NCBI GenBank assembly: GCA_004123355.1
Contig: SCHM01000001.1
Coordinates: 1,728,001 to 1,792,000, forward strand
Source of the DNA: Amphirosellinia nigrospora
Taxonomy: Eukaryota; Ascomycota; Sordariomycetes; Xylariales; Xylariaceae
Direction of reading: 5' to 3'
Length of the DNA stretch: 64,000 nucleotides
The position numbers and the translations under genes were made by a program. Under the pieces are notes generated by a model that had not been told where the DNA came from, searched no databases, and saw only the letters and a program-made list of their open reading frames with translations. Of the stretch, positions 18,474-23,803 are shown in pieces. Every line of letters begins with the position of its first letter. Position 1 is the stretch's first letter.

Positions 18474-21319
18474 ATGTCGACATCGAACCACGTCACCGAT
18501 TTGCAAGCTCACGGAAATAGTAGGATTCATATTGGGAACCATACCACGGTCCAGGGTAAATTGCCTCTTACATCTTACTGGTGTGACAACGTCCCTTATG
18601 TGTATGCCGACTAAACGCCTGCAGCTCCTGAGCGCTCGGAGACACCGCCAAAGCCATCATCATTCATTCCCTTCTGCCGCGACAGCCTCTTTATCGAACG
18701 TAAGACTATCCTCGATCAAATACCTCGAATATGTTCCACACCACCTTCACGCGCTGCCCTTGTAGGACTAGGCGGGGTAGGCAAGTCACAGCTCGCCATC
18801 GAATACGCATATAGGGTGCGAGATGAATTTACACGGAAACACGAGGAGATCTGGGTCTTTTGGATCCATGCCGCTACGCGAGCGCGCGTTGAACAAGGTT
18901 TCAAAGCTATTGCAGACGCCGTCCAGATCCGTGGTCGAAACCAGTCTGGGGCGGACATTCTCCAGCTCGTCTATCAATGGTTATGCAATGAGCACAATGG
19001 CCGGTGGTTGATAGTCTTGGATAGCGCCGACGATGCCAATGTGTTCTTTGGTGTTAGTCAAAATGGGGAACAACCTGCTACTTCTGGAAAAGAGACAAGG
19101 GTACTATCAACATATCTACCACAAAGTTCGAACGGATCAATTGTCGTCACAACAATAAAAAGGGATGTAGCATTCAAGCTTACAGGCCATCATGACAACA
19201 TTATCGACGTCGGGCCAATGGACCGCTCTGACGCCCTTGCGCTGCTTAAAAAGAAGTCGGGTTCCCAGTTTGACGAAGTCAGCGGAATTGAACTTGTTGA
19301 TGCTCTTGGGGAATATCCTTTAGCGATTGGCCAAGCTGCGGCTTATATACAGCAGAGAGCGCCGCGTACTTCAGTCAAGACCTACCTAGAAGAATTCCGT
19401 CAAAATGAACAGAAAAGGTCAGACCTCCTAAACCACGATAGTGGCGATTTTCGACGCGAGCCGGACGTGCCGAATTCGGTTATAGCCGCGTGGCAAATCT
19501 CTTTCGAACACATCCGCTCGCAAAGACGATCGGCGGCAGCGCTGTTATCACTCATGAGTTTGTTTGACTGCCAAGGGATCCAAGATTACTTAGTTCGGCC
19601 AAATATCCATAATGAGTATGGCATACACAAAGGACCACCGGATAACGAAAACTTGGTAGCTGGCGAACATTCGTCCAGCATGTTCGAAGAAGATATCATA
19701 ACACTTCGAAACTACTGTCTGATCAGCATGAATGAGACGGGCGACATGTTCGAGATGCACGGATTGGTCCAATTGTCTACTAGAAAGTGGCTAGACATGC
19801 ACGAAGCGACCGAGACGTTCAGGATGGCGTGCATAAATCGATTAAACTTAGCGTTTCCAACGGGAGAATTCTCAAACTGGCCTATTTGCCGTGCGCTTTT
19901 CCCGCACGTTGAGGAAGCCGTTCAATATTGTCCGACGACAAGGAATTGGAATCGCTAAAAGACTTCAGTCGCATGTTATTGCACGGCAGCTGGTATTCTA
20001 AGGAGCAGGGCAGATATACCACAGCGGAACTCATGGCTGAGAAAGCGCTGAGAGCGTCAAAGAAAGCCTATGGTGCAGAGCATGAGAGTATTGTGTGGAG
20101 AATGGGCGAACTAGCTGAGGTGTACTCGTTCCAGAGGCGGTGGAAAGATGCCGAGCAACTGCTTATCAAGGCACAAAAGATACGTGGCGCCGTTTTGAAG
20201 CTAGATGATCCCTGCGCGCTCATCATCGCGAGTAGACTAGCGAAGACCTATTCAGAAGAAGGTCGATGGGGCGAGTGCGAGTCGCTGTTCCAGCACGTAA
20301 TAGAAGGGTGGGAAAGGGCGTTGGGGTCAGATCATCACAATACACTGACTGGTATACACAACTTAGCTTACGCATATAACCGTCAAGAACGGTGGCAGGA
20401 GGCTGAGCCGCTATTGCAACAAGTAGTTGAAAGGCGAAAAAGGGTGCTGGGGCCAAATCATCCCGATATACTGAACAGTATACATAACTTAGCTTACACA
20501 TATAACTGTCAAAAACGGTGGCAAGAGGCTGAGCTGCTATTGCAACAAATAGTTGAAAGGCGAAAAGAGGTGCTAGGGCCAGATCATCCCAATACACTGG
20601 CTAGTATACACAACTTAGCTTCCGCTTACACCCGTCAAAAACGGTGGCAGGAGGCTGAGACGCTGTTCCTACAAGTAGTTGAAAGGAGGAAAAGGGTACT
20701 AGGGCCAGATCATCACGATACACTGCAAAGTATACACAACTTAGCTTACGCATATAACTGTCAAGAACGGTGGCAGGAGGCTGAGCCGCTATTGCAACAA
20801 GTAGTTGAAAGGCGAAAAAGGGTGCTGGGCCAGATCATCCCGATAACACTGGCTAGTATGCACAACTTAACTTACGCATATAACCGTCAAGAACGGTGGC
20901 AGGAGGCTGAGCCGCTGTCCCAACAAGTAGTTGAAAGGCGAAAAAGGGTGCTGGGGCCAGATCACCCCGATACACTGGATAGTATGCTCGGGTTGGCGTA
21001 TAGTTGGAAGGGCTTAGGCCATACTAACGAGGCAACGGAGTTAATGGGGCAGTGTGCTCAAGCCCGAATTCGAGTCCTGGGGCGTGAGCACCCTGCTACT
21101 CAATGGTCGTTGTCAAAATTACAGGACTGGCGTACTGAGAAACCGCAAAGTCAGGAAAGACGCCGGAAGCCAATGGCTAGAAACAGGAGGTTCCTCAACA
21201 TTGCGGAACCCCGAATCACTCGCTCACGCGGCGGAATCGGGGTCGTGGCTCAAGGCCGCTCAGCCCAGCTCGAACGGGCTTGCGAAGCCAGGCTGGGGTA
21301 TAGGGCGAAAAGTGTTTAA
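18474..21319 (+). CDS. NOD-like receptor: N-terminal amyloid motif, NB-ARC ATPase, TPR repeats
   Basis: Predicted intracellular immune/incompatibility receptor of about 925 residues. Exon 1 is 18474-18555, intron 18556-18624 (GTAAAT...GCAG), exon 2 from 18625, joining in phase. Residues 10-22 read LQAHGNSRIHIGN, close to the HET-s-related amyloid motif. A Pro-rich linker (ERSETPPKPSSFIPFCRD) is followed by the NB-ARC domain: Walker A GLGGVGKSQ (about 18765-18790), Walker B RWLIVLDSADD, a sensor-like GSIVVTTIKRD, and GEYPLAIGQAAAYIQQ in the GLPL position. A helical segment with MFEMHGLVQLSTRKWL (MHD-like position) leads to kinesin-light-chain-type TPRs. One base is missing near 19935 between NB-ARC and TPR regions; a compensating pair lies at about 20828-20846 inside a repeat. 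The C-terminal 70 residues may be in a wrong frame. The HET-S homologue downstream is its likely effector. Confidence 0.85.
20340..20990 (+). repeat. Tandem 126-bp repeats encoding 42-residue TPR units
   Basis: Five consecutive units of 126 bp, with a partial sixth, recur at about 20350, 20476, 20602, 20728 and 20854. Each contains an AGTATACACAACTTAGCTTA-like block and encodes SIHNLAYAYNRQERWQEAEP followed by LLQQVVERRKRVLGPDHP, the kinesin-light-chain TPR pattern. DNA identity between units is very high by eye, so the array is young or kept uniform by gene conversion. Confidence 0.9.
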
Positions 21320-22931: not shown

Positions 22932-23803
22932 ATGACGGCGGCATTTGGCATCGTAGCCGGCGCTTTGAGCGTGGCCGCCCTTTTCAATAATTGCGTTGAA
23001 TGTTTCGAGTATATCCAACTCGGCCGCCATTTCGCCAGAGACTACGAACGATGCCAACTCAAGCTCGATGTCGCCCGAACCCGGCTAAGCCGGTGGGGTC
23101 ACGCTGTTGCCATTAATCAAGACCCTCGATTTGCTACCGATAGACCGGACGACGAGTCTGTTCAACAGGTCCAGGACGTTTTGGAACAGATTGGCGAGCT
23201 CTTCCAGACCTTGGAAAACACATCGAAGCGGTATACAAGACGCGCGAAAAAAGAGGACCTCAGGCACCTCCAAGTACAGGCCATGCAGCCAGTGGCCCAG
23301 AAATTGCATAGCCGTCTCAGTGCCATTGTTCGGCAGAGGCAGGAGGGAACGAGCTTTGCAAAGAAAGCCGCATGGGCATTGTACGATGGGAAGAACTTTG
23401 AGAAGCTGGTGAATGAGATCACGGGATTCATAGATTCGTTAGAAAAGCTGTTCCCGGCAAATAGAAGCGTCCGTCACACGCTAGTAGAGATGGAGATTGA
23501 AGAGGTGGACGACGAGCCGAGTCTCGGAGCGTTGCAGGATGCCGCCGCAGATACCGACAGCGTTCTATTAGAGGTTGTTGCTAATAAATTAGAGTCATAC
23601 GGGGAAGGAATTATGCGAAGGACGTTCGGAGCGATGAGAACGCGCGAGTTAGAGTTGGCAATGAATGGGGTAACATGATGCCGAGTTATAGTCTGCCTGG
23701 TCGGGGTCAGACCTGGAATGAGGCCGGTTTAGTCGCAGCGAGAGGCTCATCAGGAGTTCATATTGGAAATAGCTTCGGAGGGCGTGGTATCTTTGATAAT
23801 TGA
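22932..23803 (+). CDS. het-S: HET-S-like protein: HeLo domain plus C-terminal two-repeat amyloid domain, frame-broken
   Basis: Heterokaryon-incompatibility/cell-death effector. I chose ATG 22932 (MTAAFGIVAGAL) because it matches the N terminus of HET-S proteins; an in-frame ATG lies upstream at 22884. The HeLo domain shows LFNNCVECFEYIQLGRHF, RDYERCQLKLDVARTRLSRW, then KKAAWALYDGKNFEKLVNEI. Residue 33 counted from ATG 22932 is His, the HET-S-type residue. After about 23630 the amyloid part is read in the next frame. Repeat 1 is NARVRVGNEWG and repeat 2 is SSGVHIGNSFGG, with a GRGIFDN end like the HET-s terminus GKGFWDN. The GN pairs are exactly 36 residues apart, as in HET-s. One frame change near 23630-23650 separates HeLo from the amyloid part; given other breaks in the window it may be an assembly error, or the amyloid domain may truly be cut off. 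In the family, amyloid templating drives the HeLo helix into the membrane. Confidence 0.88.

What the first reader, a model, noticed from the sequence alone, without database searches (positions are those of the whole stretch)
18474..23803. NB-ARC/TPR receptor and HET-S homologue share an amyloid motif: candidate NLR/HET-S cell-death pair
Seen: the receptor N terminus (residues 10-22) is LQAHGNSRIHIGN. The second C-terminal repeat of the HET-S homologue reads VAARGSSGVHIGN. Of 13 aligned positions 7 are identical and several of the rest are similar. The genes are co-oriented, 1.6 kb apart, with nothing between. Known: in Podospora anserina the NLR NWD2 carries an N-terminal motif that templates the HET-S amyloid and triggers HeLo-mediated death; that receptor is NACHT/WD40. 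Inferred: here the same signalling uses an NB-ARC/TPR receptor, so the amyloid module has been paired with a different receptor scaffold.
Basis: partly seen in the sequence, partly recalled or inferred. Interest (0 to 1): 0.92.

Follow-up and report, generated by a model that had tools for sequence, protein, structure and literature searches.

The report
Fungal immune receptor paired with HET-S
A fungus carries, side by side, an intracellular receptor and a HET-S-type self-killing protein that share a short amyloid-forming motif, so the receptor probably triggers cell death by passing on the amyloid fold; such pairs were already known, but here the motif and the partner may have been exchanged between relatives.

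Summary
A Xylaria-like fungus has an NB-ARC/TPR receptor (18474-21319) whose separate first exon encodes one HET-s amyloid repeat (R0), and 1.6 kb downstream, co-oriented, a HET-S homologue (22932-23803) with a HeLo domain and two repeats. R0 meets 9 of 9 published consensus positions but scores below Pfam's cut-offs. The death-pair interpretation is well supported. The claimed novelty, a different receptor scaffold, is not: Podospora FNT1/HELLF already pairs an NB-ARC/TPR receptor with a HET-s-related motif, and 20 of 120 listed receptor homologues carry R0. More interesting: close relatives of this receptor carry another amyloid motif (PP) at the same junction; the motif type changed about five times on the receptor tree; sharing a contig with HET-S follows the motif (R0 13 of 20, PP 1 of 59; within Xylariales 1 of 20); and this pair's HET-S is from another clade than the HET-S partners of the receptor's nearest R0 kin.

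The parts
18474..18555 (+). receptor exon 1: start codon and amyloid motif R0 (repeat core 18486-18539)
   Evidence: M1 and motif align with Xylaria database proteins from their first residue; 9 of 9 consensus positions; own profile 20.1 bits; coordinates checked
18556..18624 (+). intron (GTAAAT ... CTAAAC ... GCAG)
   Evidence: removal gives VQAPERSETPP, as in X. castorea VQAPERPETPP; homology to a PP-type receptor begins at the intron's 3' end, window 18621; PNT1 has its single intron early too. No RNA data
18625..19945 (+). receptor exon 2, NB-ARC part (P-loop GLGGVGKS at 18765-18788); the frame leaves near the 3' end
   Evidence: PF00931 24.9 bits, cut-off 23.5; DUF7779 PF25000 25.3 bits, below its cut-off 27
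19940..21319 (+). receptor TPR part; tandem 126-base units at 20313-20985
   Evidence: TPR_10 E 4.4e-101; 5.3 copies, 85% matches
22932..23600 (+). HET-S homologue, HeLo killer domain, His at position 33
   Evidence: PF14479 202.6 bits; HET-s HeLo crystal chain 2wvn E 6.1e-77; His33 here and in 93 of 120 listed homologues
23601..23605 (+). one-base frame change in a G run between HeLo domain and repeats, as assembled
   Evidence: frames; the tails of relatives printed read through here
23609..23662 (+). HET-S amyloid repeat r1
   Evidence: PF11558 61.6 bits over r1-r2, cut-off 32.2; ungapped 66-residue match to 2kj3; coordinates checked
23717..23770 (+). HET-S amyloid repeat r2; stop codon at 23801-23803
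   Evidence: as r1; the only PF11558 match found in the genome at E<=0.001

Best explanation
A two-gene amyloid-signalling death module of the NWD2/HET-S and FNT1/HELLF kind, in a Xylariaceae-like fungus. Shown here by sequence: an NB-ARC/TPR receptor with one canonical (HRAM1) HET-s repeat on its own first exon, next to a HET-S homologue with a HeLo domain and two repeats. Inferred from the studied systems: an unknown ligand binds the TPR array, the NB-ARC part oligomerises, the clustered R0 segments fold as a HET-s beta-solenoid, this templates the HET-S tail, and the HeLo N-terminal helix is released into the membrane, killing the cell. His33 predicts the killing (HET-S) rather than the silent prion (HET-s) form.
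For: HeLo and tail matches to Pfam and PDB; R0 consensus and profile; R0 in 20 of 120 listed receptor homologues at 10.4 bits or more, the other 100 at 1.7 or less; 13 of 20 R0 receptors share a contig length with a listed HET-S gene, against 1 of 59 PP-type receptors (Fisher p 4e-9) and 1 of 20 PP-type receptors of Xylariales (p 1.4e-4); consecutive locus tags DL770_005826/005827 in Monosporascus CRB-9-2; receptor and HeLo distances correlate over the 13 other pairs, Mantel r 0.755, p 2e-4, and over 14 with the window, r 0.66; in this genome no close paralogue of the receptor (next best 32% identical), one PF11558 match and one PF17108 match.
Against: R0 is below both Pfam cut-offs, and the genome-wide PF17108 hit has E 0.34, a level also reached in 4 of 14 control genomes. 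Both reading frames are interrupted as assembled. R0 is no more like its own partner's repeats than like other species' repeats (permutation p 0.24 for r1, 0.98 for r2, 14 pairs), so there is no sign of pair-specific co-evolution beyond the family. No functional data.
Confidence: 0.85

Rival explanations
1. The frame breaks are real and the pair is a decaying, non-functional remnant.
For: Frame changes near 19940 and at 23601-23605, and an out-of-step stretch in one TPR unit. Not every HSP70 locus of the genome is broken: five of ten show no such junction.
Against: In five of ten HSP70-family loci of the same assembly there are eight junctions where consecutive pieces of one gene change frame while overlapping or lying within 17 bases, about one per kb over their 8.3 kb, like the density here. 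P-loop, FEMHGLVQ motif, R0 core positions, His33 and the whole tail are kept, and between the breaks each frame is open.
Confidence: 0.1
2. The 13-residue likeness is coincidental or the receptor signals to something else.
For: Short motif; Pfam scores below cut-off; genome-wide E 0.34; no cognate-specific similarity.
Against: 0 of 20000 shuffles; the genome's one PF17108 hit lies next to its one PF11558 match; the motif is kept at the same place in 20 of 120 homologues; motif and HET-S linkage go together across genomes.
Confidence: 0.03
3. The locus works mainly in allorecognition (heterokaryon incompatibility), as het-s/het-S does in Podospora, rather than in defence against other organisms.
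For: HET-S homology; divergent HET-S types among Xylariales and a discordant pair would fit balancing selection.
Against: The prion allele system is described as apparently specific to P. anserina (PMC4344463, passages); the window has the killer residue His33, and Pro occurs in only 1 of 120 listed homologues. One genome cannot show polymorphism.
Confidence: 0.12

Closest known systems
NWD2/HET-S of Podospora anserina
   Same: HET-S homologue with HeLo and two HRAM1 repeats; single R0 at the receptor's N terminus; adjacent genes
   Different: NWD2 is NACHT/WD40 and the P. anserina pair is divergently transcribed (PMC3321046); here NB-ARC/TPR and co-oriented
FNT1/HELLF of Podospora anserina
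   Same: NB-ARC/TPR receptor with a HET-s-related R0, adjacent killer with two repeats; function shown in vivo (PMC7885112, passages)
   Different: HELLF has a HeLo-like domain and HRAM5 motifs (PMC7889193, passages); here a true HeLo domain and HRAM1 motifs
PNT1/HELLP of Podospora and Chaetomium
   Same: receptor with an N-terminal amyloid motif; P. anserina PNT1 is NB-ARC/TPR and has a single intron near the motif's end (PMC7885112, passages)
   Different: PP (RHIM-like) motif and HeLo-like effector
HeLo + NB-ARC/TPR pairs of Arthroderma (PMC3321046)
   Same: HeLo effector next to an NB-ARC/TPR receptor sharing an amyloid motif
   Different: the shared motif is PP, not HET-s

Membership tests
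NLR/HET-S amyloid-signalling pair (HRAM type) | effector with HeLo domain | tested here: met
   PF14479 202.6 bits; PDB 2wvn E 6.1e-77
NLR/HET-S amyloid-signalling pair (HRAM type) | two C-terminal HET-s repeats on the effector | tested here: met
   PF11558 61.6 bits, cut-off 32.2; 66 residues ungapped to 2kj3
NLR/HET-S amyloid-signalling pair (HRAM type) | one homologous repeat at the N terminus of an NLR | tested here: met
   N1, hydrophobic 3/6/14/16, G10, R13, G17, N18: 9 of 9; own profile 20.1 bits, E 3.5e-6 in a set of 121; but below both Pfam cut-offs
NLR/HET-S amyloid-signalling pair (HRAM type) | genes adjacent | tested here: met
   1.6 kb apart, no open stretch over 88 aa wholly between
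NLR/HET-S amyloid-signalling pair (HRAM type) | intact reading frames | tested here: inconclusive
   both frames broken as assembled; five of ten HSP70 loci break in the same way
NLR/HET-S amyloid-signalling pair (HRAM type) | amyloid templating and cell death | not testable with these tools
   needs protein and strains
HRAM1 subfamily | N at position 3 and no Q at 16 or 18 (PMC4518210 numbering) | tested here: met
   R0, r1 and r2 all have N there and I or V at 16 and 18
NWD2 orthologue | NACHT and WD40 domains | tested here: not met
   NB-ARC over its cut-off, NACHT under it (17.1 against 26.7), TPR repeats
FNT1/HELLF type (HRAM5) | HRAM5 motif and HeLo-like effector | tested here: not met
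   HRAM1 positions and HeLo PF14479

The most novel reading that the evidence does not exclude
On one NB-ARC/TPR receptor lineage of Xylariales the amyloid motif is a swappable exon. Sister receptors carry HET-s R0 or the RHIM-like PP motif at the same junction, about five switches are needed on the tree, and co-location with HET-S follows the motif, so that exon exchange re-wires one sensor from one death pathway to another. In this fungus the partner was also changed: its receptor belongs with the castorea/cubensis/scruposa receptors, but its HET-S comes from the longipes/Nemania clade.
Probability: 0.5. Interest if true: 0.66.

Novelty: new member of a known kind. Interest (0 to 1): 0.42.

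Why it matters
As a pair it extends canonical HET-S signalling to an NB-ARC/TPR receptor lineage found in several Xylariales genera (Xylaria, Nemania, Ustulina, Monosporascus among the listed hits). The comparison is worth more: receptors about 70% identical to this one that differ in amyloid motif are a natural experiment on whether the motif alone decides which killer protein an NLR activates, and how such pathways are re-wired without killing the cell. The discordant pair asks whether R0 and the tail must co-evolve; the lack of cognate-specific similarity suggests that one HRAM1 receptor may be able to fire more than one HRAM1 HET-S.

Tried and rejected
Cognate co-evolution of R0 with its own partner's repeats: tested over 14 pairs, not found; one search was a first run with a faulty motif cut in some rows, and its pair statistics are superseded (its shuffle test does not use those cuts). 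A second R0 receptor (for example of NWD2 type) in this genome: none at E<=10 with PF17108, with limited power for so short a motif. PP-type receptor in this genome: none found; the probe, one PP receptor's first 60 residues, matched only exon 2 of this receptor. PP motif in the loci held at that time: none by text pattern. An intron instead of a frame error between HeLo domain and repeats: judged unlikely from the relatives' tails; not tested with RNA. One clade for the window's seven local R0 receptors is not rejected (p-AU 0.25), so a fresh gain of R0 in this fungus alone is not shown. The large receptor tree used 61 of 121 rows; the careful one 38 of those 61: all R0 rows but the long P0195, the three PNP rows and 15 PP rows, the six unclassed rows left out. 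The HeLo tree used 38 rows, 37 of 120 homologues and the window. The R0 profile used 85 of 120 HET-S homologues; 35 were dropped because the pattern did not find both repeats. Motif classes were set by profile (R0) and by text patterns plus hand-named rows (PP, PNP); 34 of 120 stayed 'other'. The PP set of 59 holds many non-Xylariales, whose HET-S may lie below the listed 120, which inflates the contrast; hence the Xylariales-only count. Protein listings show only the best 120 of 277 and 120 of 1180 hits. The HeLo query ran 75 bases past the frame break. Structure prediction was not run.
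Full report
What is there. The window is from a fungal assembly of 48.1 Mb in 11 contigs. The closest named HET-S relatives are from Xylaria and Nemania, so a Xylariaceae-like fungus; the species is not known to me. A receptor gene starts at 18474. Its first exon (82 bases) encodes MSTSNHVTDLQAHGNSRIHIGNHTTVQ; a 69-base intron with a fungal-type donor, branch site and acceptor (recalled consensus) follows; exon 2 encodes an NB-ARC domain (PF00931, 24.9 bits, over its cut-off of 23.5) and then TPR units, 126-base tandem repeats at 20313-20985 (5.3 copies, 85% matches). 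An in-frame stop lies two codons upstream of the start codon. 1.6 kb downstream on the same strand lies a HET-S homologue: HeLo domain (PF14479, 202.6 bits; E 6.1e-77 to HET-s chain 2wvn) and a tail with two repeats (PF11558, 61.6 bits against a cut-off of 32.2; ungapped over 66 residues with the HET-s fibril sequence 2kj3).

Is the shared motif real. Daskalov et al. 2012 (PMC3321046; outline, passages and part 3 of section 3 read) give for receptor motifs N at 1 and 18, G at 10 and 17, hydrophobic residues at 3, 6, 14 and 16, and R at 13. The receptor exon meets 9 of 9. Its poverty in E and K (one D) and its wealth in H and S fit what PMC4518210 (outline, passages, parts 1 and 2 of section 2) reports for receptor motifs. 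All three repeats have N at the position that marks HRAM1. 0 of 20000 shuffles reach the alignment score. Searched through the 48 Mb, PF17108 gives this exon as its only hit at E<=10 (E 0.34; 4 of 14 control genomes also give a hit at that threshold, none over the cut-off), and PF11558 gives only this HET-S tail (0 of 14 controls). Against: the exon alone is under both Pfam cut-offs. PMC4518210 notes that only 38 of its 155 double-motif proteins matched PF11558, so that model is strict.

Frame breaks. The receptor changes frame near 19940, one TPR unit reads out of step for a stretch, and HET-S changes frame at 23601-23605 between HeLo domain and repeats. As a control I searched the same genome for HSP70: of ten loci, five show eight junctions at which consecutive pieces of one gene lie in different frames and overlap or lie within 17 bases, too close for introns; the other five show none. 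Over the 8.3 kb of the broken five that is about one per kb, like the density here. I take the breaks as probable assembly errors, not proven; intact relatives of both genes exist in other species.

Relatives. Of 120 receptor homologues listed (of 1180 found), 20 score 10.4 bits or more with a profile made only from HET-S repeats (85 of 120 homologues usable), the window scores 20.1, and the other 100 score 1.7 or less. The database's own Pfam marks PF17108 on five of the 120, and one (P0148) is named 'NWD2 HET-s N-terminal domain-containing' there, so the architecture is already in public databases. Pairing by equal contig length: 13 of 20 R0 receptors share a contig with a listed HET-S gene, against 1 of 59 PP-motif receptors, 0 of 7 with a PNP domain and 1 of 34 others (the last a truncated protein on a 15-kb contig). 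Because many PP rows are not from Xylariales and their HET-S may fall below the listed 120, I also counted Xylariales alone: 13 of 20 against 1 of 20, p 1.4e-4. Equal contig length is not adjacency; in Monosporascus CRB-9-2 the locus tags are consecutive.

Motif exchange. 59 of the 120 homologues carry the PP motif at the same place, directly before the shared APERPETPP segment in the closest ones, which is where exon 2 begins in the window: a PP receptor used as probe matches the window only from its residue 31 on. P. anserina PNT1 also has its single intron early, at nucleotides 95-148 (PMC7885112, passages). On a tree of the receptor core without the motif (38 rows, chosen as told under Tried and rejected) the R0 label needs 5 changes (5-6 over the bootstrap range); 0% of 200 bootstrap trees have it once, and one clade is rejected (p-AU 2e-5). 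Starred branches alone force only 2 changes. The 13 R0 receptors of the other group are also rejected as one clade (p-AU 0.015), but the seven around the window are not (p-AU 0.25). A larger quick tree (61 rows) gives 6 changes, 4 of them forced by starred branches. These groups were named after seeing sequences and trees, so the p-values flatter. The tree cannot say which way the changes went, and unsampled old paralogues could mimic exchange.

Discordant partner. Over the 13 other pairs, receptor and HeLo distances agree (Mantel r 0.755, p 2e-4). The window departs: its receptor is closest to those of X. castorea, cubensis and scruposa (67-73% identical, same 100/99 clade, which also holds three PP receptors), but its HeLo domain is only 62-64% identical to their HET-S and sits in another clade (99/98) with X. 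longipes and Nemania (82% to X. longipes); joining it with theirs is rejected (p-AU 5e-7). Re-pairing, or old alternative alleles or paralogues, would explain this.

Mechanism. Reported by others for NWD2/HET-S and FNT1/HELLF (PMC4344463, PMC7885112, PMC7889193; passages): receptor oligomerisation, beta-solenoid templating, HeLo activation. Inferred here by homology. His33 is the residue whose change to Pro makes the silent HET-s (PMC10197012, passages); the window and 93 of 120 listed homologues have His. The ligand is unknown.

Novelty. PMC12258605 also reports that in 17% of large NLR orthogroups minor N-terminal types occur in one or two sequences. A HET-s/PP switch on one receptor lineage tied to HET-S linkage I did not find in the passages read or in the paper searches; supplements were not readable. 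PMC9815663 and PMC12881547 were also read only in passages. Hence: new member of a known kind, with a more interesting evolutionary story around it.

Noticed in passing
window 16052-17539 (minus strand) and 24774-26692 (plus strand): The neighbouring genes, which look like a sugar or MFS transporter and an amino-acid permease (my reading of the translations, no profile search), also seem to switch frame without room for introns, as HSP70 loci do: the assembly seems to carry many one-base errors.
   Followed up: partly
L002 (G000:C1:11281419-11282012 and flanks): A protein with an N-terminal HeLo domain (174 bits) followed by a P-loop-like GKAGSGKST stretch, perhaps the all-in-one alternative to the two-gene pair in the same genome.
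   Followed up: no
Homologue P0159 (Nemania FL0916): A PP-motif receptor shares a contig length with a HET-S gene (P0011) of the window's HET-S clade: the one such case among 59 PP receptors.
   Followed up: no
Homologues P0135, P0141, P0142: In the same receptor lineage the listed Pfam domains include PF01048 (PNP_UDP), fused in place of a short amyloid motif.
   Followed up: no
window 19749-19772, motif FEMHGLVQ: The MHD motif of NB-ARC proteins reads MHG here and in most listed homologues (FEMHGLVQ in 91 of 120), although changes of the Asp activate some plant NLRs (recalled).
   Followed up: partly
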